Shown: piece after piece, positions 11,633-29,762 of the stretch
Layout: each line of letters starts with the position of its first letter
Position numbering within the stretch: position 1 is the first letter of the stretch
Assembly (NCBI GenBank): GCA_938074445.1
Contig: CALJEK010000010.1
Coordinates: forward strand, 1-64,000
Reading direction: 5' to 3'
DNA from: Candidatus Kryptoniota bacterium
Lineage (GTDB): Bacteria; Bacteroidota; Ignavibacteria; Kryptoniales; Kryptoniaceae
Length of the DNA stretch: 64,000 nt
Notes under the pieces: model-generated
The model's input: the letters and a program-made list of their open reading frames with translations, nothing else
Databases searched by the model: none
Told to the model about the DNA's origin: nothing
Program-made: the position numbers and the translations under genes

Positions 11633-13294
11633 ATGCATCGTTTGAAACTTTTGTTTATCTTTCTGCTTTTTTTCGACATTATCAATGCTCAAGTTCAGGT
11701 CTCACCAGATACTATCGTTATTTCAAACTTTATTGATTTCGCTGATACCACACTAAGCACTGGGGTTGATTTTAGTAATTCGTCTGGTCAATTAATTTTA
11801 AAAACTGGCGAGCAAGAAAACCTTGCCAAGAATAAGAGGGCGACGATAACTTATTACGGGACTGGTGAGCCGAAAACCTCAACCGGTGAGCGGGATACTG
11901 TTACGGGAAATCCGATGAAAGTAATCGATGGAAATACTAAAACATTTTGCCAGATTAAACCAGGTGGCGACGGGAGTTACATTCTTATTGATTTGCTTGC
12001 GTTTAGAAAAGTTAACAAGATTGTAATTGTGACCTTTGGTCTAAATCAATCTCTTAGACCAAGGGCTTACACGATTTATGCGGGAACCGATTCAATTCAA
12101 TTAACGAGGATTTTACAAAAGACCGATAATCTGGATGTAAAAACTATCGATATTTTTGACCCAATTATCGTGAGATTTATAAAGATTGTTTTTGATGTCA
12201 TTGATAGGTTTAATTCAACAGTTATATCTGAAATAGAGGTTTACGGTGTAGGATATTTATCGTATGGTGAGTATTATTCCAAGGTTATTGATGTAGGGCA
12301 GGTGGTGAATTGGGGTTGGGCTGAATGGGATGCTGAATTACCCGCAGGTACTAACATAACTTTTCAATTTCGAACAGGTTCATCGCCTGTGGTCAATAAT
12401 ACTTGGAGTCAGTGGTCTCCGGAGATCTCTCAAACCGAGGTTTTAAAGGTTGATGAACCAAGGCGTTATATTCAATTTAAGGCAAATTTATCCACATCAA
12501 GCACAGAAACGCCAATTTTAAAAAGACTATCGATATTCTACGATAAAAAACTTGTTGCTCGAAACATCGCTTTTGAAGTTAACCCATCTGTTGTTCCGAT
12601 TTTAAAGCGAACGGAGATATCTTGTGATTTTAATGTTGAAGTTGATGAAAATTCGCTCGGCATTGATACTTTGGTTATATTCACACCATCTCCAGCAAAT
12701 GTAGAATCCGTTTTACTCGATGGAACCCCGATTGCTTATTCTGTGATCTCAAGTCCCGAATATGTTAAAGTAGGTTTTAATCGCTCAATTAATTCAAATT
12801 CACGGATAACTGTTAAACTAAGTTTAACTCTTTATCTTGATGTTAATGAGTTTCCTGCGGTTGCAATAAGCAAAGTTACGCCTTCAAATCCACAGTTTGT
12901 CAATGCGTATAAAAGAGGAAATTTGAGCAGTTGGGCTGTTTTAACAACCGGGGTCTCTGAAAGATTAATAGTTGATTTGGTGATAAATCCAAATCCATTT
13001 TCTCCTAATGGAGATGGATTAAACGATAAAACCCAAATAAGTTTTTTCATTTCAAACCTTAATGCCGAGAGAAATTTAAAAATTCAAGTTTTCGATCTAA
13101 CTGGCAGACTTGTTAAAACAGTTTTTGATGGTCCAAGCAAAGCGTTTGCTTATATTTCTTCTAACTCATTTTCATGGGATGGCAGAGATGATAATGGCAA
13201 GCTTGTCAGACCTGGTGTTTATCTTTTAAGAGTTTCAATAGATGCAGACACAGGGACTGAATCGGTTTTTAAAACTATAACCGTTGTTTATTGA
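11633..13294 (+). CDS. Secreted protein with discoidin-like domain and C-terminal FlgD/T9SS-type Ig domain
   Basis: 553 residues. A signal peptide (about 1-20, ending I-N-A-Q) leads into a region (about 65-190) that looks like an F5/8-type C (discoidin) carbohydrate-binding fold: K-V-I-D-G-N-T-K-T-F-C, later V-R-F-I-K-I-V-F-D. The last 100 residues begin N-P-F-S-P-N-G-D-G-L-N-D and end S-W-D-G-R-D-D-N-G-K-L-V-R-P-G-V-Y-L-L. This is the FlgD-type Ig fold common at the C-terminus of exported proteins in T9SS-bearing phyla. It is likely exposed at the cell surface. It is the first gene of the envelope cluster and its stop overlaps the next open frame. Confidence 0.72.
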   Translation: MHRLKLLFIFLLFFDIINAQVQVSPDTIVISNFIDFADTTLSTGVDFSNSSGQLILKTGEQENLAKNKRATITYYGTGEPKTSTGERDTVTGNPMKVIDGNTKTFCQIKPGGDGSYILIDLLAFRKVNKIVIVTFGLNQSLRPRAYTIYAGTDSIQLTRILQKTDNLDVKTIDIFDPIIVRFIKIVFDVIDRFNSTVISEIEVYGVGYLSYGEYYSKVIDVGQVVNWGWAEWDAELPAGTNITFQFRTGSSPVVNNTWSQWSPEISQTEVLKVDEPRRYIQFKANLSTSSTETPILKRLSIFYDKKLVARNIAFEVNPSVVPILKRTEISCDFNVEVDENSLGIDTLVIFTPSPANVESVLLDGTPIAYSVISSPEYVKVGFNRSINSNSRITVKLSLTLYLDVNEFPAVAISKVTPSNPQFVNAYKRGNLSSWAVLTTGVSERLIVDLVINPNPFSPNGDGLNDKTQISFFISNLNAERNLKIQVFDLTGRLVKTVFDGPSKAFAYISSNSFSWDGRDDNGKLVRPGVYLLRVSIDADTGTESVFKTITVVY

Positions 13295-13314
13295 AAAATA
13301 ACTTTTTCATTTCG

Positions 13315-14235
13315 ATGAAGAAAATTGTTCTGTTGATAATTTTAGTTGTGGTTGAGTTTAACATCGCGTTTGCAGGTGCTTTTAAAGACCTTGGGAACGG
13401 AGCCAGGGCTATATCGCTTGGTTCGAGCTATGTTGCTGTTTCTGATAATCCGTACGCTATCTTTTATAATCCAGCTGGAATAGGGCAGGTGAAAAGACTT
13501 AACTTGGCAACGACATATTCGCGACTTTATCCGTTCGTTCAAGATGAAAACCTTTATTATTTAACCTTTGCTGGGGTTTTGCCTATTTTCTCAATTTTTG
13601 ATTTCGGTTTTGGGATTTCATATTTCAAGACGGGGATGTGGAGTGAAAACCAGTTCATTTTCTCAATGGCGAGGGAGTTCAGGTTTATCAGGGGTTTATC
13701 AATAGGGGGAAACTTGAGGTTTTTGAGGTGGTCTGCTATTGCGCCGGTTGGGGAATCGGGTTATTCTTACTTCAATTTTACATTTGACGCTGGCGCCATT
13801 TTTGTATGGAAAGATTTCGTAAATGGTTCTAATTTAAGATTTGGATTAGCGGTGAAAAATTTAACACAGCCAAGTATTGCGGTGAATAAGTCACCTGATG
13901 CGAAATTACCGCTTGAGATTTCAGGAGGTGTTGTGTATGAATCAAATCTTTATAATTATTTGGTAGGTTTGGGAGCTTCGAAGTCGGATAATGGGTTAAA
14001 AATTGATGTTGGAGTGGAAATTTTAGCTTTCTCTTCCGAATTTTTAAAAACTAATTTCGAATTTGTCTTAAGAGGTTCAGGCGGAGTCATTGTTGAGGGC
14101 GGAAAGCAATCCAGCTTAAACCCAGGGTTCGGAGTAAAATACTGGAAATTTAAAATTGATTATGTTTATGTTTATCAATTTGAAATACCAGATGCAGGTG
14201 GGAGTCATAAGTTCAGCATTGAATTCAATTTTTAA
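13315..14235 (+). CDS. PorV/PorQ-family outer-membrane protein
   Basis: 306 residues from the ATG at 13315; an in-frame TTG at 13291 would add eight. A signal peptide ends near A-F-A-G-A-F. The mature N-terminus has the family mark G-A-R-A-I-S-L-G-S-S-Y-V-A-V-S-D, then F-Y-N-P-A-G-I. Alternating beta strands continue to the C-terminal S-I-E-F-N-F, as in FadL/PorV barrels. PorV shuttles type IX cargo in Bacteroidota. The preceding gene has a T9SS-type C-terminal domain, so a shuttle or surface role is plausible but inferred. Confidence 0.75.
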   Translation: MKKIVLLIILVVVEFNIAFAGAFKDLGNGARAISLGSSYVAVSDNPYAIFYNPAGIGQVKRLNLATTYSRLYPFVQDENLYYLTFAGVLPIFSIFDFGFGISYFKTGMWSENQFIFSMAREFRFIRGLSIGGNLRFLRWSAIAPVGESGYSYFNFTFDAGAIFVWKDFVNGSNLRFGLAVKNLTQPSIAVNKSPDAKLPLEISGGVVYESNLYNYLVGLGASKSDNGLKIDVGVEILAFSSEFLKTNFEFVLRGSGGVIVEGGKQSSLNPGFGVKYWKFKIDYVYVYQFEIPDAGGSHKFSIEFNF

Positions 14236-14255
14236 AAAAATTGAAACACAACGCC

Positions 14256-17219
14256 ATGAAAAGGTTTGTTATACTTGCCGTAGTTTCAATTATTTGTTTT
14301 GAGAGTTTAGTTGCGCAGTTTATCGCAAGAGATAAGGAGAGTTACCTTAATTATTCGGGGAGAAATTATGAAAACTATAGCATATCATTTTTGAGAAAAC
14401 GATTTTATGATAACTTTGGGAATTTTCTCATAGATGGGAGTTTGATTTTTGAGTTGCTTGAGAATCAGCGTCAGCTTTTGGGACAGGAGTTAGGTGGATT
14501 TAGTAGTTTAACGAAGTCAAGATTTTACTATCAATATTTTCAAAATCTTGTGATCGCAAGTGATAATTATGGTGATTTTCAAACGAGGTTAATAATCGGG
14601 GATGCTATAAGGACGAAATTTACATCGCTTACATTTGATAAGGCAAGATTTAACGGTGTTAGATGGGATGGGGCTACGACAAAGCATAGAGGCACGGTCG
14701 TCTTTTCAAGGGTTAGTGATCCTGTCAGATTTAGGTTTGATTCACCTCTTTTGATCGATGGAATTCAAAGGACACGAAATTGGGCTCAATATCTTTTCGG
14801 CGGTCATTTTGAAACGGACATTGGAGATGTTTTAACAATTGGTGCAACTTATGTAAATCAACATACGAGGCGTATGGATGTTAACGCTCGGGATGTGCCA
14901 TTTAAAGGGGTTCCACCGAATGGGGTTCCCAGAATTATTTTTGTCAGGATAAGTGACGATTCTCCGAAAGATGGTTCTGGTCCAATAATTTATTCAGAGC
15001 CTATTATTAAAATTAACGGTGTGCGGGTTCCAACAAAAAATATAAATGGCAAGGTCCCAACCCCACAAGAAACTGTTCTCGGTGCGCCAATTCAGTATTA
15101 CGTCTTTAGAAACTTCAGCATAGATAGGACGCTTTGGGTTGCTGGGGCTGATACATTAAGTTACACCGCTTATACTCCAATTCAAGGTGGACCCGGATAT
15201 AAGTTTAGGTCTATGTTATCAGCTTTGCCAGCTTACCCTGAGCAAATTCCAAGCGATGGGAATATAACGTTTGCTTATATAATCCCGCCCAAGGTTGAGT
15301 CAGTTGAGTTTGAACTTGTTGTCGCTAATGATTTCAAAATTGAAGCAGCGCATGATTTTGTTAATCGTCTTGATGATTGGGAACAAACTACAGGTGCGCG
15401 ATTTATTGCACATTATGATTCTATCGCCGTTGGAACACCAACATTTTTCAGACTTATAAAAAGGGCGGAAGGAAATGTTAAAGATGCATCAAATAGACAA
15501 ATTGTAAGGTTTAATTATGCTCTAACAACTGGAATGAGTGTGTATAGTTTAAACTTTAAATTCAACTGGAAAGGGTTTAATATAGAGGGTGAATTTGCTC
15601 AAAGTTTGGAGTGGTCGAAGTATCCCGTGGGACGTGGTCCTTGGTTTACGAAGACTGGGAACGCATTTTATATCAAAGCTTCTAAAAAAGTAGGGCGTTT
15701 AACTTTTGGATTTGAACGGTATAAAATTGAGCCAAATTATACAACTTCCCTCAATGTTTATTCGCTCGAAAACAGTTACTATATGATGTGGACAGGGTCA
15801 GGTTACAGTTATCTTGCGCCTGATGTTTACGGTGTGACAGCCTACGATGTTTCGAGCTCAATTTCTTTTATCCCAGGTGGGGCTTACTTTTCACTTGTTG
15901 ATGATAACGATGATAGAGATAGATGGGAAGATGGATTTTATTTCTACAATGCAACGCCAAATCCGACATTTGAGAATAGCGATGTTTTAAATCCGACGCC
16001 TGACCCGTTTTTATTGGGCTATAGGCAAAACGCAAACGAATTAATTGGCTTAACAAGTATAATAAGAAGACCTGACGCAGGCATATTCCCCGGGAAAGAT
16101 AGAAATAATGATGGAATACCTGACGATGACCAAAACGCTAACGGTATCCCTGATTATCAGGAAGATTTCTTAACATATTACAGTGATCCGCCAACCTTTG
16201 ATTATGGCGATGACTGGAATAACAACGGTGTAATTGACGAGCAAGAAAACGATATATATCCAGATTATCCTTATGAGCCAGACATAAACGGTTACCATGC
16301 TTTTACAAGATTGAATTTAACGAGAAATTGGTCATCGCAATTTGGTCTTATAAACGAGAGGGCTATCGCAAGAGGTGGAATTAATCAAGTTTTTTATTTT
16401 AAAACACTTTACTCCACGATGAACCCACGGCTTGGCTCAATCCTTTTGTATTATGTGATGAAAAGAGTTAGGGATGAAATTCCAAATCCAGTTTATCAAT
16501 ATAAAGGTGTGATAACGATAACAAGTCCTTTCCCTGTATTTACGGAAGACCCTTTGAGATATAGAAATAGTTTCGTTCATAATCTCTATTTTGAGGCAAG
16601 ATATACGCAGATACCAAATCTTAATATTGAAAACAAAGTTCGTTTTGAACTCAATTTCCAGCGTCCACTTGGCGATCCATCAAGAGCTTTGCTTCCGGAG
16701 GCGAAATACACTGGTGATCAACTTGATGGTAGGATAACGCTATGGGGTCTTGTTCATAAAATTGATTACACAATTAGACTTCTCAATAATCGACTTGAGA
16801 TAAGACCGCAGTTTAAGGTTAGAACAGTTAAAGAGGTAAAGCTCGGCTATGTTGATGTTGGGGGAAGTTTAAGAAAGGTTCCGAATGTAATTCAACACAC
16901 TCAGGAGATAATACCAATCTTTAGAATTGGGTACAAGTTAACGGATCGTTCTGTTTTTAATTTTGGACTTCAAGGTTTGAGCATTATAGGATTGCCAGAT
17001 ATGTTTTCGTATCAGATAAGAAACTTAAAAGATGGAACAGGGAGCGAAAATAGAGGCACAATAGCTTTTTCGTTGACAAATCAAAGTTCGTATAAAGGAT
17101 ATTCAATTGTTGTTGATTTCGGATATAAGTTTACAAAGAGAAAATTTACAAAGCCTGGAGAAGAAAGGTATAGTCGTGATGAGTCAGCGATATTTTTCAC
17201 TGTTATAGCAGGCTTTTAA
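14256..17219 (+). CDS. Large outer-membrane-type protein of unknown function with Ca-binding-like repeats
   Basis: About 987 residues from the ATG at 14256, which gives a clean signal peptide ending L-V-A-Q; TTG at 14241 is the alternative. The chain is rich in alternating aromatic strands and ends Y-S-R-D-E-S-A-I-F-F-T-V-I-A-G-F, typical of outer-membrane barrels. In the middle (about 610-680) it has acidic segments resembling thrombospondin type 3 or dockerin calcium loops: D-R-N-N-D-G-I-P-D-D-D, N-A-N-G-I-P-D, and D-W-N-N-N-G-V-I-D. I recognise no named family. It sits between a PorV-like and a TPR gene. Confidence 0.65.
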   Translation: MKRFVILAVVSIICFESLVAQFIARDKESYLNYSGRNYENYSISFLRKRFYDNFGNFLIDGSLIFELLENQRQLLGQELGGFSSLTKSRFYYQYFQNLVIASDNYGDFQTRLIIGDAIRTKFTSLTFDKARFNGVRWDGATTKHRGTVVFSRVSDPVRFRFDSPLLIDGIQRTRNWAQYLFGGHFETDIGDVLTIGATYVNQHTRRMDVNARDVPFKGVPPNGVPRIIFVRISDDSPKDGSGPIIYSEPIIKINGVRVPTKNINGKVPTPQETVLGAPIQYYVFRNFSIDRTLWVAGADTLSYTAYTPIQGGPGYKFRSMLSALPAYPEQIPSDGNITFAYIIPPKVESVEFELVVANDFKIEAAHDFVNRLDDWEQTTGARFIAHYDSIAVGTPTFFRLIKRAEGNVKDASNRQIVRFNYALTTGMSVYSLNFKFNWKGFNIEGEFAQSLEWSKYPVGRGPWFTKTGNAFYIKASKKVGRLTFGFERYKIEPNYTTSLNVYSLENSYYMMWTGSGYSYLAPDVYGVTAYDVSSSISFIPGGAYFSLVDDNDDRDRWEDGFYFYNATPNPTFENSDVLNPTPDPFLLGYRQNANELIGLTSIIRRPDAGIFPGKDRNNDGIPDDDQNANGIPDYQEDFLTYYSDPPTFDYGDDWNNNGVIDEQENDIYPDYPYEPDINGYHAFTRLNLTRNWSSQFGLINERAIARGGINQVFYFKTLYSTMNPRLGSILLYYVMKRVRDEIPNPVYQYKGVITITSPFPVFTEDPLRYRNSFVHNLYFEARYTQIPNLNIENKVRFELNFQRPLGDPSRALLPEAKYTGDQLDGRITLWGLVHKIDYTIRLLNNRLEIRPQFKVRTVKEVKLGYVDVGGSLRKVPNVIQHTQEIIPIFRIGYKLTDRSVFNFGLQGLSIIGLPDMFSYQIRNLKDGTGSENRGTIAFSLTNQSSYKGYSIVVDFGYKFTKRKFTKPGEERYSRDESAIFFTVIAGF

Positions 17220-17222
17220 CGC

Positions 17223-17230
17223 GGAGGTGA
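17223..17230 (+). promoter_or_regulatory. Strong ribosome-binding site for the TPR gene
   Basis: GGAGGTGA lies 6 bases before the ATG at 17237. It is a near-perfect Shine-Dalgarno site in a window where many genes have only A-rich leaders. Confidence 0.75.
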
Positions 17231-17236
17231 ATCAGT

Positions 17237-20200
17237 ATGTGGAAGATAATTATTATAATCACATTAGCTGCATCCATAGTTGCGAACTTTATTCCGACAC
17301 CGCTTGAACTTCAAAAGGCTTTCGTTTCGGGGCAAAATTTTTACGCAAGTGGTGATTTTAAAAAAGCGATAAGTCAATACGATTTCATTATAAAGACCGA
17401 AAGTAAATTTTTAAATGAGGATAGCGTGAAGGTTGCGCTTTTCAACGGTGATTTGATAGTAAGCGTGAAGACGGCAGCTTATTATCAAAAAGGCAACGCT
17501 TTAAGAAAACTAAAAAATAATGCTGAAGCGATAGAAAACTTTAGAGTTGTTTCTGAAAGAAGAAACGATTCCCCTTGGCTTTCAGCCCTCGCACAATATC
17601 AAATTGCTGATATCTATTACGATGAAGGAAAATTTGAAGAAGCAATAGAGGAGTCGAAGAAATTAATTGATCGATTCCCTAACGATGAGCGTGTTCCAAA
17701 GGCATATTACACGATCGGTTGGGCATTTAGGGAGTTAAATGCGCTTGACAGTTCAATTTTTTACCTTAAAACATTGCTTGAAAAATTTCCCAGAGGTGAA
17801 CTTGCGCCACATTCGATGTATCAGATCGGACAAAATTATTATGATAAAGGAAACTTTGATATAGCGTTGAGTTGGTTTAAAGGCGTTGTCGATAGGTTTA
17901 AACCGGAAGGTTTTAAAAAAGAAGAGTTTGAAAAAATCGAATTGAAAGCTGTAAGGGAAAGAAAAATTTTTGAAGCTGTAACTGGGCGAGAGGGGGAAGA
18001 AACCCCGCTTGAAATTGTAGCGAAATCAAGTTTGAGAATCGCTGATTGTTATAAAATGATGGATGAGTTTAATGAAGCGATCAAAGCATACAGAAACGTT
18101 ATAGCGACGTATAAACTTTTGCCAAGTTTAATTGAGACAGCATATATAAAAATGGCTCAATACACGCTTGAGAAGAAAGGACTTGAGGAAGGGATTTCAA
18201 TTTATAGAGAAGCAATTGATAGGAACTTTGAGAATAAGCAATTGCAAGCGAAAATGCAGTATTTAATTGCAAGAACTTATCAAGATTCGCTTCATTATGA
18301 TAAAGCAGCAAGCGAATATGACCTTTACATTAAGGCATACGGCGAAATTGCGTTTTTGATCGATTTCCCAGTTGAAGATGCGATTTATTCAAAGGTTATA
18401 TGCCTTTACAACGCAAAAAGATATAGAGAAACAATCTCTGAGTGCGATTCTTTTTTGGTAAGATTTCCGGGCTCAAATTACATCCCAGATATGCTCTTTT
18501 TCAAGGGGATTTCGCATCTTGCGGTAAGAGAGTATGTTTCGGCTGAAAGTTCCTTTGTCGCGATAAAGACGCGATATAAAAATTCACCACAGTATGTGCA
18601 TGCATGCGTTCAACTTGGGAGGACATATTATGAATGGAAACGATATGAAGATGCCCTGAACGAGCTTAACAAAATACTTGCCCAAGATTTGCCGGATTTG
18701 AACAAGGATGAAGCCTATTACTATATTCTTTCAACTTACTTTGACACGCAGAATTATGATTCTTTATTGAGCATTTTTCCAAAAATTACACCTGGCTCGA
18801 GTTTTTATTTACCTGCATTTATAAAGGTATCAAAGTCGTTTAGCTTGCAAAACAAATTCGTAGAAGGGGAAAAGTTCATCAAAGATATTTTGAGAACTGC
18901 GGAATCTTTAAAGGACAGTATATATTTCATTCCAGAGGTTCACTTTTCACTTGCGGATGTTTACATCGGTCAGGGAAGATATAAAGACGCCGTTGAAGAG
19001 TTGACGTTCGTTATAGATGATCCAAAGGCTAACGAGATGCTCAGGCTTCAGTCTATCTACGCTCGGGGTTCGCTTTATTATCAACTTGGGCAATATAAAG
19101 AAGCAGTGGCTGATTTTGAAAAGTGTGTCTTAGACAAAAAGTTCAATGAGAGCTTCCCCCAACTTGTTTCCCAAGCGAATGAAAAATTGGCGATTTCATA
19201 TATTAAAATTGGGCAGGTTAATAAGGGGATAGATTTTATTTCAAAGTTGATCGGCGAGGCAGTTGAGGTGGCAGAGAAGATTAGATATACTGCTACGCTT
19301 GCGGAGGCGTATTTCGAGATAAAGAATTATAAAGATGCGGTAAGGTTTGCAAGTGATGTTTTTCAAAGCGATGTCTCAGATGAATCTGTTTTCTCAAGGG
19401 CTACTTATGTTCTCGCTAACTCTCACAGGGAGCTGGGTGAGTTTAACAAAGCGTTGGCTGTTCTTTTAAGAGCCAGCGAAAAATTCCCAAATTCAAGCTT
19501 CGTTCACGATGTTTTCTATTCGACAGGAGCCGTTTACTATGATAAGGGTGAGTATGAAAATGCAATCGAAATTTTCGATAGATTTTTAAAACTTTTCCCA
19601 AATTCGCATAACTATAAAGATGCTCTTTTCTTTTTATCTTACTCATATTTCAGACTCGGATATTGGGACAGATCAGCGCTGTATTTTAGAAGATTTGTCA
19701 GAGAGTTTCCGAGCGATGGGCTAACACCAGAGGCGTATTTTAATATCGGTGAATCTTACTATAACATGGGGAAATATGAAGATGCGATCCGCGAATATAG
19801 AAATGTCTATAGGATTTTTCCGAACGATGAGCTTGCTCCAATAGCCCTTTACAGTGAAGGTTGGTGTTATTATGAACTTCAAAAACCCGAGCAGATGATC
19901 GAAACTTTTAAGCAACTTGTGAAGCGATATCCAAAAAGTGAATATGCGCCGATTGCTCTTTTCACGATTGGGGATTACTATTATAACTTAAAGGATTATA
20001 TGAGAGCACAACAAGCGTATGAGGAGTTTGTGATGTTGTATCCTGGACATGAAAAGGCGGGAGAAGCAAGGCAACTTATCAAAGATTTAAAGCTCATAAA
20101 TGTTTACGCTGAATATCAAGAAGCGATGAAATACTTTGATAACAAAGATTATCGTCGCGCAATTGATGAGTTGACAAAGATATGGCAAAAGTATCCGGAC

Positions 20201-20392
20201 TCGGATATCGTCGTTGGATGTCGCGTAAATATCGCTGCTGCATATGAACAACTTGGCGATTGGCGGAAGGCAGCAAAGATGTATGAGGAAATAATTCGAG
20301 ATTATGGGAATTCAACGGATGACAATGCTCGCGCTGCCGTTATTTTTGCGAGAGAACATCTTGAATGGTTGAGAAGCAACTTTAATTTTTAA
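17237..20392 (+). CDS. Giant periplasmic TPR-repeat protein
   Basis: 1051 residues. An N-terminal hydrophobic segment (about 2-17) suggests export or anchoring. Almost the whole remainder is tetratricopeptide repeats of the YbgF/BamD type, with recurring Y-x-x-G-x-F-x-x-A-I and F-P-N-x-x-x-x-P-x-A-Y-Y-x-I-G units, from about residue 30 to the C-terminus. Such arrays scaffold protein complexes. It lies 23 bases before exbB and is almost certainly in the same operon, which suggests a structural partner for the ExbB/ExbD motor. Exact partners are unknown. Confidence 0.8.
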   Translation: MWKIIIIITLAASIVANFIPTPLELQKAFVSGQNFYASGDFKKAISQYDFIIKTESKFLNEDSVKVALFNGDLIVSVKTAAYYQKGNALRKLKNNAEAIENFRVVSERRNDSPWLSALAQYQIADIYYDEGKFEEAIEESKKLIDRFPNDERVPKAYYTIGWAFRELNALDSSIFYLKTLLEKFPRGELAPHSMYQIGQNYYDKGNFDIALSWFKGVVDRFKPEGFKKEEFEKIELKAVRERKIFEAVTGREGEETPLEIVAKSSLRIADCYKMMDEFNEAIKAYRNVIATYKLLPSLIETAYIKMAQYTLEKKGLEEGISIYREAIDRNFENKQLQAKMQYLIARTYQDSLHYDKAASEYDLYIKAYGEIAFLIDFPVEDAIYSKVICLYNAKRYRETISECDSFLVRFPGSNYIPDMLFFKGISHLAVREYVSAESSFVAIKTRYKNSPQYVHACVQLGRTYYEWKRYEDALNELNKILAQDLPDLNKDEAYYYILSTYFDTQNYDSLLSIFPKITPGSSFYLPAFIKVSKSFSLQNKFVEGEKFIKDILRTAESLKDSIYFIPEVHFSLADVYIGQGRYKDAVEELTFVIDDPKANEMLRLQSIYARGSLYYQLGQYKEAVADFEKCVLDKKFNESFPQLVSQANEKLAISYIKIGQVNKGIDFISKLIGEAVEVAEKIRYTATLAEAYFEIKNYKDAVRFASDVFQSDVSDESVFSRATYVLANSHRELGEFNKALAVLLRASEKFPNSSFVHDVFYSTGAVYYDKGEYENAIEIFDRFLKLFPNSHNYKDALFFLSYSYFRLGYWDRSALYFRRFVREFPSDGLTPEAYFNIGESYYNMGKYEDAIREYRNVYRIFPNDELAPIALYSEGWCYYELQKPEQMIETFKQLVKRYPKSEYAPIALFTIGDYYYNLKDYMRAQQAYEEFVMLYPGHEKAGEARQLIKDLKLINVYAEYQEAMKYFDNKDYRRAIDELTKIWQKYPDSDIVVGCRVNIAAAYEQLGDWRKAAKMYEEIIRDYGNSTDDNARAAVIFAREHLEWLRSNFNF

Positions 20393-20401
20393 AATAAAAT
20401 T

Positions 20402-20407
20402 AGGTGG
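20402..20407 (+). promoter_or_regulatory. Ribosome-binding site that fixes the exbB start
   Basis: AGGTGG lies 8 bases before the ATG at 20416. The upstream in-frame GTG at 20404 is part of this site, so the ATG is the better start. Confidence 0.65.
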
Positions 20408-20415
20408 ATGGTTTT

Positions 20416-21282
20416 ATGATTCTTTTAATTCAGCAAAAATCTTGGTGGTCTTGGCTTTGGGATAACTGGCTTATTGATATAATTATCAAGGGTGGTCCGT
20501 ATATTATGGTTCCGCTTCTTATTTTTTCTGTGATCTCTATGGGTATAATTATAGAGCGAATTTACAGATACGTTCGGATTCCAAAGGATAAAAAAATTGC
20601 GGGGATATTGGAGGAGGTTGAAAAGATTTTGAGGGAAAACAAAAAGATTGAACCTGTTGTTAAATATTTTGAGAGCCGAAAAAATGCGCTTTCTTTCGTG
20701 TTCTTGTCAATTTTAAAAAGATATGAATTCTTGCTTCAAGAGAATCGCTCTATAAATGATATGCGTCAAGAGTTGATGGATACCGCGATTGATTCGACAA
20801 GCGATTATCTTGAAGAGTTTTTGCCAATTGTTGCTACAATTGCTAATGTCGCGACATTGCTTGGGCTTTTCGGCACAATTGTGGGAATGATAATGTCATT
20901 TGATGAGCTTGCGAAGGGCGGGCGCGGAGACCCAGCTGTTGTGGCTCATGGAATATCTGTTGCGCTTTTAACCACAGCTGCTGGGTTAACCGTTGCAATT
21001 CCTTCTGTGCTTGGCTACAGCTTTTTGAAAAGGAGAGCGGAGAAAATCACAAAGCATCTTGAACCATTTGAAAATCACTTTGTGAATACATTGCTTCATG
21101 AGCATGGGAGAATTGAATCTTATAGGGCAATTGTTGCCAGTATCTATAGAAATGGAAATTTGACGGAAGAGGAGAATGAGTATTTGAGGCGCAAAAGAAT
21201 TGAACTTGACATTTCAGATGAGGAGGCAAAGATGATTGAAAGTGAGGTCATTGAGAATTTAAAAGAGAAAAAAGAATCGTGA
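20416..21282 (+). CDS. exbB: ExbB/TolQ/MotA-family proton-channel protein
   Basis: About 288 residues. One membrane helix lies near residues 27-50 (G-G-P-Y-I-M-V-P-L-L-I-F-S-V) and two more in the C-terminal half. These include the family signature A-T-L-L-G-L-F-G-T-I-V-G-M-I and A-L-L-T-T-A-A-G-L-T-V-A-I-P. With ExbD it forms an inner-membrane motor driven by the proton gradient. Six bases separate it from exbD. The charged C-terminal tail is longer than in typical ExbB. Confidence 0.9.
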   Translation: MILLIQQKSWWSWLWDNWLIDIIIKGGPYIMVPLLIFSVISMGIIIERIYRYVRIPKDKKIAGILEEVEKILRENKKIEPVVKYFESRKNALSFVFLSILKRYEFLLQENRSINDMRQELMDTAIDSTSDYLEEFLPIVATIANVATLLGLFGTIVGMIMSFDELAKGGRGDPAVVAHGISVALLTTAAGLTVAIPSVLGYSFLKRRAEKITKHLEPFENHFVNTLLHEHGRIESYRAIVASIYRNGNLTEEENEYLRRKRIELDISDEEAKMIESEVIENLKEKKES

Positions 21283-21288
21283 TCGGCG

Positions 21289-21711
21289 ATGAAGAAAAGC
21301 AATAAAAATAATGGTTATTCTGTTGACATTAACTTGACGCCGATGATTGATTGTGTTTTTCAACTTTTGATATTTTTCATGGTGACAACCGTATTCGCAG
21401 TTCAAAGCGGTTTGAAGGTTGATCTTCCAACTGCGGCTTCTTCCGATGCCCCGCCGGAGAAGGATTTGACAATAGTTATCTCTTCAAGTGGAGAAATGGA
21501 TTTAAATGGGAGAAGGGTTACATTTGATAATTTACAAGAAGAGATGTTGAAGGATAAGGAAATATTTGGGAGCAAGGTTTTGATAATCAAGGCTGATAAG
21601 AAAACATTGCATGGTGTGGTTGTGAAGGTTATGGATATTGCGAAGTTGTGTGGAATTGATCAACTTGCTATAGCTACTGAAAAGGAGGAAGAAGAAATAC
21701 AAGTTAAATAA
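21289..21711 (+). CDS. exbD: ExbD/TolR-family proton-channel protein
   Basis: 140 residues with one membrane helix. The essential proton-carrying Asp is D21 in N-L-T-P-M-I-D-C-V-F-Q-L-L-I-F-F. The periplasmic domain has the family L-P-T-A-x-S at the helix exit and V-L-I-I-K-A-D-K later. It works with the ExbB just upstream. Its stop is one base before the ATG of the TonB-like gene, so all three are probably translated together. Confidence 0.92.
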   Translation: MKKSNKNNGYSVDINLTPMIDCVFQLLIFFMVTTVFAVQSGLKVDLPTAASSDAPPEKDLTIVISSSGEMDLNGRRVTFDNLQEEMLKDKEIFGSKVLIIKADKKTLHGVVVKVMDIAKLCGIDQLAIATEKEEEEIQVK

Positions 21712-21712
21712 T

Positions 21713-22969
21713 ATGGAGCGCAAAAGTTTTAAAATACCAGGGGTTGAGCTTAGCGATAAGATAGAGCGATTTATATATGAAAACCGAAAAGCGCTGTTGA
21801 AGTTTTTGCTTATTGCTCTTTTAATTCATAGCATACCTGTGATTTTAAATGTAAAGCTTCCCGAGAAAAAAGAGATAAAACGACCTCCAACGACTGTAAA
21901 ATTTATCCAAAAACCGCCCCGTTTGACGAAAAATATTGAATTCAGAAAGATGCCCACGATAGTTGAGCGGGTTATTCAGAAATTTGTGCCCACGCAAAAG
22001 CCTCGAATGTCCGCTCGCTCTATGACAACTGCTGCTGTTCACGGTGGAACCTCCCTCGCCTCGCTCGCTAGACCAGGCGAGTATATAGAAAGAACATACA
22101 GTCCTCCTGCGATGTTAACGGGACCGAGTTTGAACTATGATATAATGAGCACGAGACATTCTGGGAGGACGGTAAAGAGCCTGCAGGAAGAGTTGATAAG
22201 TTATACAAATTTTATGGATAGATTCGAAGGTTGGCTTGAACGTGGCAGAAGCAAAGAGGACTGGAGGGGATTTTTAAATGTTTATCAAGTGCAATATAGA
22301 AGCAGTAAATCAGCCCCAAACGGTGAACCGATGTGGAACTATAGACCAGCTGCATTACAAAATCTTCAAAGATATGCTATGGAAGTTTTGCCCAATCTTC
22401 AACTTAACCTTATGGGTTCAATTCGACTTGACTCGAAAAATATTATGGATGTTCCAATTCTCATAATGATGGGCTATGATGGTGAGGTAATTTACACAAA
22501 AAACGAAGTAGATAATTTAGCTAAGTATCTTCGTTCTGGAGGATTTTTATTCATTGATGATGGTCTTGCATCTGCTTATGGACCGTTTACGAGATCTGTA
22601 AAGCAGTTGATAAGTGATGCTCTTGGCTATGATGCTGTGTGGGAAAGGATTCCAAATAATCATCCGATTTATCACATTTGGAAAGATTTTGATGGTCCAC
22701 CTGCTGGTGATGACCTTGCGAGGGTGGATTCGAGAAGACCAGCCCGTGAAGTTTACAATTACCTTGAGGGAATTTGGCTCGGTGGGCGACTTGCGGTGGT
22801 TTTTTCTAACCGTGGCTATACCCAGGCGTGGGGTGACTGGCCATATTCAACTCCACCACTTGATAATACAAGACAATTGCAGATGGGTTTGAATATACTT
22901 ATCTTCGCGATGAATCAACCCGGTGGAATTGTTGCAAAGAATAAAGAAAAAGTCGTGATGCAGGAGTAA
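21713..22969 (+). CDS. TonB-like inner-membrane protein with C-terminal DUF4159 domain
   Basis: 418 residues. The N-terminus is cytoplasmic, then one membrane helix (about 28-45, with His39 in L-L-I-H-S-I-P-V-I). This resembles the TonB anchor, whose helix also has a key His. A Lys/Pro-rich linker follows (P-E-K-K-E-I-K-R-P-P, later Q-K-P-P-R). No TonB C-terminal domain is present. Instead residues about 210-405 are a DUF4159-type domain, with V-P-I-L-I-M-M-G-Y-D-G, L-R-S-G-G-F-L-F-I-D-D-G, N-H-P-I-Y-H-I-W and N-Y-L-E-G-I-W-L-G-G-R. DUF4159 has a glutamine-amidotransferase-like fold in other proteins. Placement after exbB-exbD suggests an energised transducer with an unusual effector. Confidence 0.75.
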   Translation: MERKSFKIPGVELSDKIERFIYENRKALLKFLLIALLIHSIPVILNVKLPEKKEIKRPPTTVKFIQKPPRLTKNIEFRKMPTIVERVIQKFVPTQKPRMSARSMTTAAVHGGTSLASLARPGEYIERTYSPPAMLTGPSLNYDIMSTRHSGRTVKSLQEELISYTNFMDRFEGWLERGRSKEDWRGFLNVYQVQYRSSKSAPNGEPMWNYRPAALQNLQRYAMEVLPNLQLNLMGSIRLDSKNIMDVPILIMMGYDGEVIYTKNEVDNLAKYLRSGGFLFIDDGLASAYGPFTRSVKQLISDALGYDAVWERIPNNHPIYHIWKDFDGPPAGDDLARVDSRRPAREVYNYLEGIWLGGRLAVVFSNRGYTQAWGDWPYSTPPLDNTRQLQMGLNILIFAMNQPGGIVAKNKEKVVMQE

Positions 22970-23005
22970 GACATTATTCAAACAAAATTAAAAATTTCCT
23001 ATTGC

Positions 23006-23010
23006 GGAGG
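23006..23010 (+). promoter_or_regulatory. Ribosome-binding site that fixes the lipoprotein start
   Basis: GGAGG lies 9 bases before the ATG at 23020. The longer frame from a TTG at 23002 would place this site inside the gene, so the ATG is preferred. Confidence 0.65.
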
Positions 23011-23019
23011 CGATTTAGG

Positions 23020-23862
23020 ATGAAAATTAAATTTCTACTCTTATCTTTCGTGGGATTCTTGTGGGGTTGTGCTTATTTGTTAAATGAAAATTATGAAGAG
23101 CAAACTAAGCCGAATGCGCCGACCAATTATACTGTAGCTGAAACCCTTGCAACAGTTGTGAAGGATAGTGTCAAAGTAAGCGTTAAACTTCTTACGCCAG
23201 CAGAGATAAGAGGTATAACAGCCGGCAGAAGGTATGAAAAGAAAGATTTTGAAAAAATTTTGAAGGACGAATATATAAATTATGCCCAAGACGATAACGC
23301 TGAAATTCTTTCCGCATACAATGAATTCATCCATGCTCAAGAGTACGGAAACTATTATGATGTGTTTGGTAACCCAATAGCTCCACAAAACATACCAAGC
23401 CCGTTTGAAGATGATTTCGGAAGGATTCCATATCTTATTTTTAGCGTTGTAATTGAAAATTTACGCACTGATAAAATAGAGATAAAACCATCTGCCAGTG
23501 TTTTGCTGGACGATAAGCGAAATCAGTTCCGAGCCCTTGAAGTTGATGATATAATTCAAACTGAACCAATTCCATACCCAATGAGATATATAAATCCGTA
23601 TACAATTTACGATCCGTTTCTTGCTGGGTACTTGCTTACAACGCAAAGAAGGGCGGAACTGAACAAAAAATTTCTGCGGAACATTTTGCTTCGCGATGAA
23701 AAAATATACCCTGGTGTTGTTAGAAAAGGATTGGTTGTTTTCAGAAAACCGAGTGGGAAAGTTAGATGGCTACTTTTTGTCTTGCCGGAGGTGAACATTT
23801 ATAAAGACAATGAGAAAGTCAAATCAATTGATTTCAGGTTTGAGTTTGTAAATGAAAAATAA
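23020..23862 (+). CDS. Lipoprotein of the ExbB/ExbD/DUF4159 cluster (single-domain form)
   Basis: 280 residues from the ATG at 23020. The signal peptide ends in a lipobox-like L-W-G-C at about residue 17. The mature protein has a beta-rich domain: V-K-V-S-V-K-L-L-T-P, R-I-P-Y-L-I-F-S-V-V-I-E-N-L, V-L-L-D-D-K-R-N-Q-F-R-A, then Y-P-G-V-V-R-K-G-L-V-V-F. The next gene carries the same series of motifs, so the two are paralogous over this domain. I recognise no named family. Its end overlaps the next gene by 11 bases. Confidence 0.68.
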   Translation: MKIKFLLLSFVGFLWGCAYLLNENYEEQTKPNAPTNYTVAETLATVVKDSVKVSVKLLTPAEIRGITAGRRYEKKDFEKILKDEYINYAQDDNAEILSAYNEFIHAQEYGNYYDVFGNPIAPQNIPSPFEDDFGRIPYLIFSVVIENLRTDKIEIKPSASVLLDDKRNQFRALEVDDIIQTEPIPYPMRYINPYTIYDPFLAGYLLTTQRRAELNKKFLRNILLRDEKIYPGVVRKGLVVFRKPSGKVRWLLFVLPEVNIYKDNEKVKSIDFRFEFVNEK

Positions 23863-25351
23863 ATTTGTTCTTATGATGAGAAGAAACCTTCTTGCCATTA
23901 TTTTGATTTTTATCTTGAGCGGTTGCGATAATGTTTATCGTTTCCTTTTCCTCCCGCCACAAAAAGTTGAGTATGAAATCATCCCAGATATAGAGATGAT
24001 GAAAGCGCTAAAGGATACAAGTTATTACATCGGCAAAGATTCAATGACCATCGTTTTTGACAAGGGCACTTTTAAGGTTGAAATTAAATATATGAGCGAT
24101 TATCAACTTAACAATTTTGAATTCCCAGAGGAATCCAAAGGTGGAATTTATTCTACAAATCCTTACACTTACGGCGATTGGGTTGACCCTGAACTTGGTT
24201 ATACTCCGAATCGGTTTACTGTCTTTAAGGTTTCGATATATAACTACGCTGCGCCCAAAATAAATTTCGATCCGGAAAACGCAATTTTGCTGAGCGATCG
24301 AGGTGATAGATTTGTTGCTTACGGGCTTGAAGCAAAGACAAGCAAATTTCACAGTATAGAGGAATATTACCGTGCGAGAAAAGGGTCCACTGGGATCGAT
24401 GAGGATGTCTTCGAGGCGAGAATGGGCATAGCGAGAAGAACGATGTTAACTTATGGGCGCCCCTTGTATAAAGGCGATAGCAGGGAAGGGTTAATTGTTT
24501 TTGACCCAATTTCGGAGGGAAGCGAGCGAATAAAGGTTGTCTTGAAAAATTTTATAGTTGGTTACGATGAAAATAATATGCCCAAAGATTTCATAGATAT
24601 TAACTTCTACTTCAAAAGAATTCCTGTGATTCGAAGGGTTGAGGAAGCAACCAAAGTTATTGCATCGGGTGGAGAGAGCGTCGATTTGAAAGCGTTAAAA
24701 GATAAAGAAATAAAAATATTTCAAGTTAAATATGGTGGAGATGGCGAAGAAATAGTTGAACTTGGTTTGAAAAATTTAGCTGAGTTTTTAAACAAGAAAG
24801 AAGGTTTAAAGATTACGCTCGAGAGCGGTAGGGCTGAGTCGCCAAGCATTGCTAAATCTGAGCTTGTCGTTGTGAGCGGTGGTGTGGTGAAACCTCAATT
24901 TTCACCTATTGCGGTTGATAATTTTGCTGCATGTATAAAAAACGGTGGGATAATCTTAATTGACGATCTTAATCATTCTAAATCAGGGCAATTTAATCTC
25001 GGAGCCAGGGACCTGCTTGACAAAATAAAGGCAAAGTTTAGCGGAAGCTACATTGAAAAGATTTTCCTCTCTCACCCGGTTTACTCAATCTGGGCAAAGA
25101 TAAAAGAACTTCCTCTTGGAGCCGATGATATATCCGAAGTAAAGGAGTTTGAAAGAGAAGAAAAATTTAACTACCTTGAAGGGCTTTTTTGGCAAAAGAG
25201 AATAATCGTTGTTTTTTCAAACAAAGGTTATTTGCGAATCCTTAGCAAATTTGACAACCCATCAATTGATAACACCACACAACTGCAACTTTTCTCCAAC
25301 ATCCTTCTATATGCCGTTTCAACGAAACAAGTAGCAATGAAAGCAGAGTGA
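23852..25351 (+). CDS. Lipoprotein with cluster-specific N-domain fused to a DUF4159-like C-domain
   Basis: 499 residues; ATG codons at 23873 and 23876 are alternative starts that give a more usual signal peptide. Lipobox L-S-G-C is near residue 25. Residues about 30-270 match the preceding lipoprotein in motif order: F-T-V-F-K-V-S-I-Y-N, I-L-L-S-D-R-G-D-R-F-V-A, Y-K-G-D-S-R-E-G-L-I-V-F. Residues about 300-490 match the DUF4159 domain of the gene at 21713: I-K-N-G-G-I-I-L-I-D-D, S-H-P-V-Y-S-I-W, N-Y-L-E-G-L-F-W, then I-D-N-T-T-Q-L-Q-L. It is thus a fusion of two modules found separately next door. Convergent with the peptidase gene. Confidence 0.7.
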   Translation: MKNKFVLMMRRNLLAIILIFILSGCDNVYRFLFLPPQKVEYEIIPDIEMMKALKDTSYYIGKDSMTIVFDKGTFKVEIKYMSDYQLNNFEFPEESKGGIYSTNPYTYGDWVDPELGYTPNRFTVFKVSIYNYAAPKINFDPENAILLSDRGDRFVAYGLEAKTSKFHSIEEYYRARKGSTGIDEDVFEARMGIARRTMLTYGRPLYKGDSREGLIVFDPISEGSERIKVVLKNFIVGYDENNMPKDFIDINFYFKRIPVIRRVEEATKVIASGGESVDLKALKDKEIKIFQVKYGGDGEEIVELGLKNLAEFLNKKEGLKITLESGRAESPSIAKSELVVVSGGVVKPQFSPIAVDNFAACIKNGGIILIDDLNHSKSGQFNLGARDLLDKIKAKFSGSYIEKIFLSHPVYSIWAKIKELPLGADDISEVKEFEREEKFNYLEGLFWQKRIIVVFSNKGYLRILSKFDNPSIDNTTQLQLFSNILLYAVSTKQVAMKAE

Positions 25352-27653: not shown

Positions 27654-27682
27654 TTGACTTTTTATTCGATTTTTGTTAAAAT
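27654..27682 (+). promoter_or_regulatory. Possible promoter of the restriction-modification operon
   Basis: TTGACT (27654-27659) and TAAAAT (27677-27682) are 17 bases apart, about 41 bases before the ATG at 27724. If real, translation cannot begin at the TTG at 27673. Confidence 0.35.
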
Positions 27683-27723
27683 CAGACGAGCGATGGAAAA
27701 GAGAAGATGAAAGAAGAATTTTT

Positions 27724-28482
27724 ATGGAAAAACTTATTGAGGCAGCTAAAAGCGAGATCCCATCTGTTGATCATATCCTTAACGAGACATGGGGTTATCT
27801 GGGGTTAAGTAGACCTTTTGTAAGGGATAACTTTGGGAGGGTATTAGTAATGTTCGATGAAAAAGCAACAGAGATATTTAGAGACTATGAAAAAAAGGCT
27901 TTAAAAAAACTCGCAGAATTTTGGCTGGGCTTGCAGAAGAGAGAAATTAGGGAAAGATTGAAGGAAATTATTGCTCAGGACGGCTGGGATAGGTTTATAG
28001 AAAAAGCAAGCGAAATTTTTGTAGAATTCGGAATTTTAGTTCAAAATTTTGAGAAGGTTTTAGGTAATATGAGAAAGGCAAGAGGCGGTAAAACTTTTGA
28101 AAAAGTAATCTTGAATCTCTTAAATTTTATAGATATTAAATGTGAAATCCCAAAAGGAAAAGCGAAAGAAGAGTTGAGGCGAGTTGATATAGTGATACCA
28201 TCTGTAGAGATTGCTATAAAAACTCCAGATAGAGCCATCTTTTTGACTTGTAAAAGAACGTTAAGGGAGAGATGGAAACAGGAAGTTCCTCAAGCCCGAT
28301 TGAATCAAAGAATTTATCTTATAACGATAGACGAAAGCCTATCCAAAAGCAAGGCTAACGAAATAAATCAGAAAGGATTGATTGCATTTGTTAGGGACGA
28401 ACTATTGGAGGACAAAACATTTCAAAGAATGCCCTGGATTAGGAAATTATCAGATTTACCTAAGGAGCTGAAAAAGATATGA
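27724..28482 (+). CDS. Type II restriction endonuclease, PD-(D/E)XK fold, EcoRII C-domain-like
   Basis: 252 residues from the ATG at 27724; a TTG at 27673 would add 17 charged residues. The C-terminal half carries a plausible PD-(D/E)XK site: a Glu in G-K-T-F-E-K-V-I, the Asp in R-R-V-D-I-V-I-P, then T-C-K-R-T-L-R-E-R-W. The last pattern (K-x-T then R-W with Q after) and the following Y-L-I-T-I-D-E-S-L-S resemble the catalytic domain of EcoRII. The EcoRII effector domain is absent. It overlaps the methyltransferase gene by 4 bases, which fits a cognate pair. The recognition site cannot be read from sequence. Confidence 0.72.
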   Translation: MEKLIEAAKSEIPSVDHILNETWGYLGLSRPFVRDNFGRVLVMFDEKATEIFRDYEKKALKKLAEFWLGLQKREIRERLKEIIAQDGWDRFIEKASEIFVEFGILVQNFEKVLGNMRKARGGKTFEKVILNLLNFIDIKCEIPKGKAKEELRRVDIVIPSVEIAIKTPDRAIFLTCKRTLRERWKQEVPQARLNQRIYLITIDESLSKSKANEINQKGLIAFVRDELLEDKTFQRMPWIRKLSDLPKELKKI

Positions 28483-29762
28483 AACAAATAACCCTATTTG
28501 AAACTGAAGAAAAAAATGTCAAAGTTAGTAAATCGTTAAAAGAGTTGCCTTTTAAGCGAGTAAGAGATGAATATTTTGATTTTAAAGATACACCAGCAAG
28601 CACTGGAATCTATGGGATACATCCTTATCCCGCTATGTTTCATTTTTTGGTTGTGAGAGAAATTATCAAAAATTTCTCTAAAGAGGGGGATTATCTTTTA
28701 GACCCATTTATGGGCTCTGGGGTAGTGGCTGGAGAGAGTTTAATTAGCGGAAGAAATTTTGTTGGCTATGACATTAATCCGTTGGCTGTGTTAATCTCAA
28801 AGGTTAGAACAACTCCCCTACAATTTAATATGCTTTTTGAAACATTGGAGCATATCTTAAAGACTTTCAGATGCCAAAAGCCAGAAGATGTAGAGTTCCC
28901 AAACGTTCATTATTGGTTTGATGAGGATGTAATAAAAAATCTATCGAAACTACGGCAAGTGGTGTTCAACATAGAGAGAAGCGAAGTGGGAGATTTCTTT
29001 AAGGTGGTATTTTCAGAAACGGTAAGGAGAGTTTCAAGAGCAAGATATGAAGAATTCAAATTGGTGAGAAGAAAAGATAATAATGTTCCCGATGTCATAA
29101 AAACCTTCAGGGAGGTATCTCTAAAAAATATTGGTCTACTTACAGATTTCTACAGTAAATTTACACCGCGCAATGTTTTCTTGAAACTTGAAGAGAGAAA
29201 CATAATGGATGGAATTCCATTAGAAGATAATTTTATCGATCTGGTGATAACTTCTCCACCTTATGGGGATTCTAAAACTACAGTTGCTTACGGGCAATTC
29301 TCGAGATTGTCCTTACGATGGTTGGGATTGGAGGAGAATGTTGATCGAGCCTCACTTGGGGCAAAGCCAAAGGACGTTCACTCTGGATTACCTTCCAACA
29401 TACTTTACAAATATATAGAAGAGATTGCAAGTAAAGATGAGAGACGAGCAAAAGAGGTATTTTCATTTTATGCGGATTTGTACGCGTGTATCCAAATCAT
29501 AGCAAAAAAAGTCAAGGAAAAAGGTTTTGTTTGTTTTGTTGTTGGCAACAGAAGGGTGAAAGGTTTTGAGCTACCGACAGATAAAATTTCTGCGGATTTC
29601 TTTGAGAGTCAAGGATTTGAACATCAAAAAACGATAGTAAGGACAATATCTAATAAGAGAATGCCAGTCAAAAATTCACCGTCTAACATCAGGGGTGAAA
29701 ATGATTTCACTATGAGATATGAATACATAGTAATTTTGAGGAAAAAGGGTAGCCTTATATAA
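28479..29762 (+). CDS. DNA methyltransferase of the type II R-M pair (amino-methylating, probably N4-cytosine)
   Basis: 427 residues. The SAM-binding motif I is D75-P-F-M-G-S-G81, followed by V-G-Y-D-I-N-P. The catalytic motif IV is T258-S-P-P-Y262-G-D. The T-S-P-P-Y form is typical of N4-cytosine enzymes, though N6-adenine cannot be excluded. Motif I precedes motif IV with about 180 residues between, room for the target-recognition region. Upstream H-P-Y-P-A-M-F-H-F is seen in related methylases. It starts within the endonuclease gene and should protect the host site. Confidence 0.85.
   Translation: MKQITLFETEEKNVKVSKSLKELPFKRVRDEYFDFKDTPASTGIYGIHPYPAMFHFLVVREIIKNFSKEGDYLLDPFMGSGVVAGESLISGRNFVGYDINPLAVLISKVRTTPLQFNMLFETLEHILKTFRCQKPEDVEFPNVHYWFDEDVIKNLSKLRQVVFNIERSEVGDFFKVVFSETVRRVSRARYEEFKLVRRKDNNVPDVIKTFREVSLKNIGLLTDFYSKFTPRNVFLKLEERNIMDGIPLEDNFIDLVITSPPYGDSKTTVAYGQFSRLSLRWLGLEENVDRASLGAKPKDVHSGLPSNILYKYIEEIASKDERRAKEVFSFYADLYACIQIIAKKVKEKGFVCFVVGNRRVKGFELPTDKISADFFESQGFEHQKTIVRTISNKRMPVKNSPSNIRGENDFTMRYEYIVILRKKGSLI

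What the first reader, a model, noticed from the sequence alone, without database searches (positions are those of the whole stretch)
23020..25351. Two paralogous lipoproteins, one fused to a second DUF4159-like domain
The lipoproteins at 23020 and 23852 share a motif series (a V-x-I-x-N strand, L-L-D-D/L-L-S-D with R and F, then G-L-V-V-F/G-L-I-V-F). The second adds a C-domain that parallels the DUF4159 domain of the TonB-like gene, including an S-H-P-V-Y-S-I-W stretch against N-H-P-I-Y-H-I-W and N-Y-L-E-G-L-F-W against N-Y-L-E-G-I-W-L. Modules found separately are recombined in one protein, so the inner- and outer-membrane sides of one machine may carry matching domains.
Basis: seen in the sequence. 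Interest (0 to 1): 0.7.

Follow-up and report, generated by a model that had tools for sequence, protein, structure and literature searches.

The report
Twin DUF4159 domains in envelope operon
In a hot-spring bacterium (Kryptonia), a TonB-like protein of the inner membrane and a lipid-anchored protein from the same gene cluster both end in the same uncharacterised domain, and across hundreds of related genomes they are inherited together with one large predicted outer-membrane protein, which suggests an undescribed proton-powered envelope machine.

Summary
The second lipoprotein (Lip2, 23852-25351) ends in a genuine DUF4159 domain, homologous to the one ending the TonB-like gene (21713-22969): BLASTP 1e-22, hhalign 1.7e-38, both over Pfam's cut-off. 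The link between the two lipoproteins is real but remote. With signal peptides removed, profiles score 33.9 against a shuffled maximum of 22.5, the predicted strand/helix order matches, and both look like DUF4352/telokin-type immunoglobulin-like domains. They are better called fold relatives than recent duplicates.

The fusion is not a local shuffle. Lip2 is one old family, and all its DUF4159 domains form one clade. In 391 genomes of the class, a ~1000-aa predicted outer-membrane protein (OMP) and the TonB-DUF4159 protein occur in the same 39 genomes; full-length Lip2 occurs in 37 of them, and in the other two the contig ends where it would lie. Lip1 occurs only in Kryptonium (7 of 7).

Best reading: an ExbB/ExbD-driven envelope machine whose TonB-like transducer ends in DUF4159 and works with Lip2 and the OMP. 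DUF4159-to-DUF4159 contact is untested, and Lip2's conserved Asp after the lipid-bearing Cys leaves its membrane unsettled.

The parts
11633..13294 (+). Secreted protein with F5/8 type C domain and a type IX-like C-terminal sorting/FlgD-like tail; upstream member of the cluster
   Evidence: Pfam F5_F8_type_C 3.4e-9, CHU_C 8e-8, FlgD_ig 1.2e-6; TIGR04183 27.0 bits over its 23-bit cut-off
13291..14235 (+). PorV/PorQ-like outer-membrane protein
   Evidence: NF033709 PorV_fam 8.8e-18, 64.9 bits, below its 90-bit cut-off; same position in related clusters
14241..17219 (+). ~992-aa predicted outer-membrane protein (OMP), no known family; ends in ...FFTVIAGF
   Evidence: No Pfam or NCBIfam hit; no credible match in PDB sequences; found in exactly the 39 of 391 class genomes that carry TonB-DUF4159. 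Outer-membrane location inferred from signal peptide and C-terminal Phe
17237..20392 (+). 1051-aa tetratricopeptide-repeat protein
   Evidence: TPR families to 3.3e-69; partial similarity to YbgF/CpoB and PorW/SprE models; conserved in the cluster
20404..21282 (+). ExbB/TolQ-type proton channel subunit
   Evidence: PF01618 3.7e-30
21289..21711 (+). ExbD/TolR-type subunit
   Evidence: PF02472 5.8e-31
21713..22969 (+). TonB-like transducer: transmembrane helix with invariant His (residue 39), Pro-rich linker, C-terminal DUF4159 in place of a TonB C-domain
   Evidence: DUF4159 5.9e-22 over cut-off, no TonB_C hit; His in 13/13, Ser four residues before it in 7/7 non-Kryptonium members
22325..22912 (+). 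DUF4159 domain of the TonB-like protein
   Evidence: 80.8 bits
23020..23862 (+). Lip1: lipoprotein (...LWGC-A), one predicted immunoglobulin-like, DUF4352-related domain; Kryptonium only
   Evidence: 7/7 same-genus genomes, 0 of 190 other class genomes; DUF4352 hit in 4 of 7 members, best 6.7e-4; low-confidence model, pLDDT 52
23852..25351 (+). Lip2: lipoprotein (...LSGC-D), N-terminal telokin/DUF4352-like domain plus C-terminal DUF4159
23927..24637 (+). Lip2 N-domain (residues 26-262), the most conserved part of the family
   Evidence: 59% mean pairwise identity over 22 members against 31% for the DUF4159 part; Foldseek YjhA 3cfu 5.4e-4, MPT63 1lmi 1.3e-3, YcdA 4r4g 7.9e-3
24716..25312 (+). 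Lip2 DUF4159 domain
   Evidence: 33.8 bits over the 25.9 cut-off; Foldseek to DUF4159 structure 4i66 8.7e-10, TM-score 0.80 on the target

Best explanation
The gene set encodes one trans-envelope machine driven by the proton motive force. SHOWN by sequence: ExbB and ExbD; a TonB-like protein with a TonB-type membrane helix and Pro-rich linker but a DUF4159 domain where TonB has its own C-domain; a long TPR protein; a ~1000-aa predicted OMP of unknown family; and a lipoprotein joining a telokin/DUF4352-like immunoglobulin-like domain to a second DUF4159. SHOWN by comparison: OMP, TonB-DUF4159 and Lip2 are inherited together. INFERRED: ExbB/ExbD move the TonB-like protein; its DUF4159 is the working end; Lip2's conserved N-domain binds a conserved partner, most likely the OMP (its neighbour in family f17), and its DUF4159 is the docking or counter-binding site for the transducer, either directly or through a shared ligand or the TPR protein. 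The PorV-like protein and the proteins with type IX-like sorting tails beside the cluster suggest a role in exporting or placing surface proteins. Lip1 is a Kryptonium accessory with a related immunoglobulin-like domain.
For: Co-inheritance: OMP in 39 of 391 class genomes, TonB-DUF4159 in the same 39, full-length Lip2 in 37; in the two exceptions (G623, G626, drafts 84% and 89% complete) the TonB-DUF4159 hit lies within 250 bases of the contig end where Lip2 would follow. Gene order kept in about two dozen loci; in several f17 loci the OMP lies beside Lip2 and TPR beside TonB-DUF4159. Invariant His and S-x3-H in the membrane helix, as in the SHLS motif of TonB/TolA (PMC12204202). Both DUF4159 copies keep GG, D, H, P, S-x-x-G-Y, W and N. 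Protein distances of the two DUF4159 clades correlate, r = 0.84 over 21 loci (shared species history contributes). Purifying selection on both (pairwise dN/dS about 0.01-0.09 where dS could be estimated).
Against: No interaction is shown. Lip2's DUF4159 evolves 3.3 times faster than the transducer's, so it may be a looser or regulatory element. Asp/Asn after the lipidated Cys leaves open that Lip2 stays in the inner membrane. ExbB/ExbD are absent from the locus in about half of the clusters, so the motor may be shared there. The OMP's location is inferred.
Confidence: 0.45

Rival explanations
1. The two DUF4159 domains do not meet. Each binds the same small or glycan-like ligand through the conserved D/H/S-x-x-G-Y/N pocket, and the shared domain reflects an old duplication put to similar use in two proteins.
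For: The residues kept in both copies are pocket-like and also partly kept in stand-alone DUF4159 proteins; the fold is flavodoxin/ThuA-like, a fold that often binds ligands.
Against: Strict co-inheritance and joint placement fit a shared complex at least as well.
Confidence: 0.25
2. Lip2 is an inner-membrane lipoprotein, so both DUF4159 domains stand near the motor and Lip2 regulates or assembles the transducer instead of linking it to the outer membrane.
For: Asp in 20 of 22 and Asn in 2 of 22 members right after the lipidated Cys; Lip2 lies directly after the TonB-like gene in many loci.
Against: The Asp rule comes from Gammaproteobacteria (own knowledge) and is not established in this phylum; in family f17 Lip2 lies beside the OMP, not the transducer.
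Confidence: 0.2
3. The cluster is the missing motor of a type IX-like secretion system: it replaces GldL/GldM for the SprA translocon.
For: SprA is in the genome (2197-aa frame on another contig) while GldM is not found in any class member tested, though the same model finds it in 7 of 8 genomes from outside the class; PorV-like and sorting-tail proteins flank the cluster.
Against: SprA is also present, and GldM equally undetected, in nearly all tested class genomes that lack this cluster (SprA in 79 of all 80 tested, GldM in 0 of 72 class genomes), so the cluster cannot be the general replacement; the OMP is not a SprA relative.
Confidence: 0.12
4. The motif series shared by the two lipoproteins is a chance likeness or convergence within a common beta-sandwich, not homology.
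For: BLASTP E only 0.002; Lip1's model is poor (pLDDT 52) and hits many unrelated immunoglobulin-like folds.
Against: Profile score above 100 of 100 shuffles and both reversed controls; same order of strands and of the two-helix insertion; DUF4352-type signals from both sides.
Confidence: 0.2

Closest known systems
Pfam PF13709 (DUF4159), structure 4i66 (Hoch_4089, Haliangium ochraceum)
   Same: Both C-domains pass the curated cut-off; the Lip2 model matches 4i66 with TM-score 0.80; GG-D, H and N residues kept
   Different: The usual form in this phylum is a stand-alone ~220-aa protein; here it is fused to a TonB-like stalk and to a lipoprotein, and these two groups form clades apart from the stand-alone ones
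TonB/TolA force transducers with ExbB/ExbD or TolQ/TolR
   Same: ExbB/ExbD partners, membrane helix with conserved His and usually S-x3-H, Pro-rich linker
   Different: No TonB or TolA C-domain; DUF4159 instead. The 2025 survey of these transducers (PMC12204202) searched with PF06519/PF03544/PF13103, which would miss this form
Tol-Pal system
   Same: Motor + transducer + TPR protein + lipoprotein
   Different: No Pal-type peptidoglycan-binding domain found in either lipoprotein
DUF4352 / telokin-like lipoproteins (B. subtilis YjhA, YcdA; M. tuberculosis MPT63)
   Same: Foldseek matches for the Lip2 N-domain; DUF4352 sequence hits for Lip1
   Different: Two-helix insertion; long highly conserved motifs; fusion to DUF4159
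Type IX secretion system
   Same: PorV-like protein, sorting-tail substrates, TPR protein with partial PorW/SprE similarity beside the motor genes; SprA elsewhere in the genome
   Different: GldM not detected; the cluster's OMP is not SprA; most SprA-bearing class genomes lack the cluster

Membership tests
DUF4159 (PF13709) | Curated Pfam score in the Lip2 C-domain | tested here: met
   31.0-33.8 bits against 25.9; 15 of 15 family members hit
DUF4159 (PF13709) | Fold of the solved member | tested here: met
   Foldseek 4i66 E 8.7e-10, TM-score 0.80 on the target
TonB/TolA force transducers | N-terminal membrane helix with conserved His (SHLS-type) and ExbB/ExbD partners | tested here: met
   His 13/13; Ser at -4 in 7/7 non-Kryptonium members, Ala in Kryptonium; ExbB/ExbD
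TonB/TolA force transducers | TonB/TolA C-terminal domain | tested here: not met
   Only DUF4159 found, no TonB_C or TolA hit
DUF4352/telokin-like (Lip2 N-domain) | Immunoglobulin-like fold of the family | tested here: met
   YjhA, MPT63 and YcdA among Foldseek matches, probability 0.95-1.00
DUF4352 (Lip1) | Pfam DUF4352 score | tested here: inconclusive
   4 of 7 members hit, best 6.7e-4; the window protein itself has no hit
Paralogy of Lip1 and Lip2 N-domain by recent duplication | Closer to each other than to other immunoglobulin-like lipoproteins | tested here: inconclusive
   Homology above shuffles, but no other lipoprotein families were compared; Lip1 only in Kryptonium
Lipoprotein | Signal peptide with lipobox Cys | tested here: met
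   LWGC and LSGC, Cys conserved in all family members aligned
Outer-membrane lipoprotein | Location in the outer membrane | not testable with these tools
   Asp/Asn at +2 in 22 of 22 Lip2 proteins leaves it open
Type IX secretion motor | GldL/GldM | tested here: not met
   GldM absent from the own genome and from 72 class genomes, found in 7 of 8 controls outside the class; GldL not tested

The most novel reading that the evidence does not exclude
A TonB-type force transducer has exchanged its C-domain for DUF4159 and couples to a lipoprotein carrying the same domain by direct DUF4159-DUF4159 contact, forming a third kind of ExbB/ExbD-driven link across the envelope beside Ton and Tol, dedicated to one large outer-membrane protein.
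Probability: 0.25. Interest if true: 0.75.

Novelty: new variant of a known kind. Interest (0 to 1): 0.52.

Why it matters
Force transducers that couple the inner membrane to the outer membrane are recognised by the TonB and TolA C-domains; this one has neither, so such searches miss it. No paper in the held open-access library mentions DUF4159, although the domain is present in 294 of 393 sampled genomes of the phylum. A gene set in which the domain recurs on two partners, with perfect co-inheritance of one large OMP, gives a concrete way to find out what DUF4159 does.

Tried and rejected
Recent duplication of the lipoproteins: rejected as the default, since the similarity is remote and Lip1 is lineage-restricted. 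Gene- or genome-specific domain shuffling: rejected, the fused family is a single clade over several families. Cluster as general substitute for GldL/GldM: considered and not supported, since class genomes without the cluster also have SprA and no detectable GldM. OMP as SprA relative: rejected, only a short acidic stretch matches (1471 aa of the SprA frame were tested). A decaying Lip2 DUF4159: rejected, signature residues kept and strong purifying selection.

Full report
WHERE. The window lies in a 2.28-Mb genome of 53 contigs. The nearest named records are Candidatus Kryptonium thompsonii (90% identity over Lip2) and Candidatus Chrysopegis kryptomonas (86%), then Thermokryptus and Ignavibacteria, so this is a member of Kryptonia. 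The genes from 11633 to 25351 run in one direction: sorting-tail protein, PorV-like protein, OMP, TPR protein, ExbB, ExbD, TonB-DUF4159, Lip1, Lip2.

OBSERVATION. The C-domain of Lip2 and that of the TonB-like protein are homologous beyond doubt: BLASTP 1e-22, hhalign 99.95%, both above Pfam's cut-off for DUF4159. These are the only two DUF4159 domains found in this genome. The AlphaFold2 model of Lip2 (mean pLDDT 77) places the C-domain on the solved DUF4159 structure 4i66 (Foldseek 8.7e-10, TM-score 0.80 on the target).

THE TWO LIPOPROTEINS. Single sequences give only E 0.002. Profiles with the signal peptides removed score 33.9; column-shuffled controls reach at most 22.5 in 100 trials and reversed profiles 18.7 and 19.4. 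The predicted elements run in nearly the same order: hairpin, helix, long strand, short strands, two helices, long strands, though the Lip1 model is poor (pLDDT 52, seven close sequences). The Lip2 N-domain matches YjhA, MPT63 and YcdA; four of seven Lip1 proteins hit DUF4352, a family reported to have an immunoglobulin fold (PMC4520260). That YjhA and YcdA belong to the DUF4352/telokin-like group is my own knowledge. The shared motif series is therefore best read as the signature of a common immunoglobulin-like module. Lip1 was found in all seven Kryptonium-genus genomes searched and in none of 190 other genomes of the class; a single-sequence search can miss distant forms.

AGE AND SPREAD. 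Full-length Lip2 was found in 37 of 391 class genomes. The TonB-DUF4159 protein was found in 39, including all 37. The OMP was found in the same 39. In the two genomes without Lip2, the TonB-DUF4159 hit lies within 250 bases of a contig end, on the side where Lip2 would follow, so the absence is probably an assembly gap. None of the three was found in the other 352 genomes. The Lip2 and TonB-DUF4159 counts are my own tally from the printed tables. In two dozen loci the order is kept, with two layouts; in family f17 the OMP is next to Lip2 and the TPR gene next to TonB-DUF4159. Other recurring neighbours are a DUF5683 protein, a small lipoprotein and large proteins with type IX-like tails or choice-of-anchor D domains.

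DOMAIN HISTORY. In a 77-row tree, Lip2 domains form one group (99/94), TonB domains another (88/87), and stand-alone DUF4159 a third side (100/99). The tree is unrooted and long branches meet inside Lip2, so sisterhood of Lip2 and TonB domains depends on a root on the stand-alone side. Lip2 domains have diverged 3.3 times as much as TonB domains of the same loci, with correlated distances (r 0.84; shared species history contributes). The Lip2 N-domain is at 59% mean identity, its DUF4159 at 31%. Yet GG, D, H, P, S-x-x-G-Y, W and N are kept in 91-100% of Lip2 proteins. Within Kryptonium, dN/dS is about 0.01-0.09 where dS could be estimated; many dS values are saturated.

MECHANISM. The TonB-like protein has an invariant membrane His and, outside Kryptonium, the S-x3-H spacing of TonB/TolA (motif described in PMC12204202). 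It lacks the TonB C-domain. The simplest reading is that ExbB/ExbD move it and that DUF4159 is its working end. Lip2's very conserved N-domain should bind something equally conserved, and the OMP (mean column identity 58% in 15 sequences) is the best candidate. How the two DUF4159 domains relate physically is open.

TYPE IX LINK. The genome has SprA and no detectable GldM. The same GldM model finds 7 of 8 genomes outside the class but none of 72 in it, while SprA is in 79 of all 80. Since many of those SprA genomes lack the cluster, it is not the general motor for SprA. A link to surface-protein export is suggested only by neighbours. The Kryptonia description reports 811 proteins with the Por sorting domain (PMC4737851).

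NOVELTY. No held paper mentions DUF4159, and none found describes this cluster; most subscription papers are not covered. It is a new variant of the ExbB/ExbD-transducer kind.

Noticed in passing
own genome contig C12 (L142, L158); SprA is near-universal in the genomes tested (79 of 80) while the Bacteroidia-type GldM model finds nothing in 72 class genomes. What powers SprA in this class is open; GldL was not tested.
   Followed up: partly
window 27673-29762: A two-gene unit, EcoRII-C-like protein (PF09019, 1.2e-10) and N6/N4 DNA methylase (PF01555, 4.2e-22), looks like a restriction-modification pair; a similar pair stands at the same place in L004 and none in L003.
   Followed up: partly
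L118-L141: Some genomes of the wider phylum carry a second DUF4159 form (~205-270 aa) that scores nearer to the TonB and Lip2 domains than the common stand-alone form does and keeps S-x-x-D-Y; its context was not examined.
   Followed up: no
L007, L009, L100 (c9 family): In some Ignavibacteria clusters a PstS-like substrate-binding lipoprotein (PF12849, 6e-17) and a second ExbD sit between the motor genes and Lip2.
   Followed up: no
window 14241-17219 and alignment A4: The ~1000-aa OMP has an extremely conserved Asp/Asn-rich stretch (LVDDNDDNDRWEDGF; DNDGIPDDD; GDDWNNNGVIDEQENDI) that looks calcium-binding.
   Followed up: no
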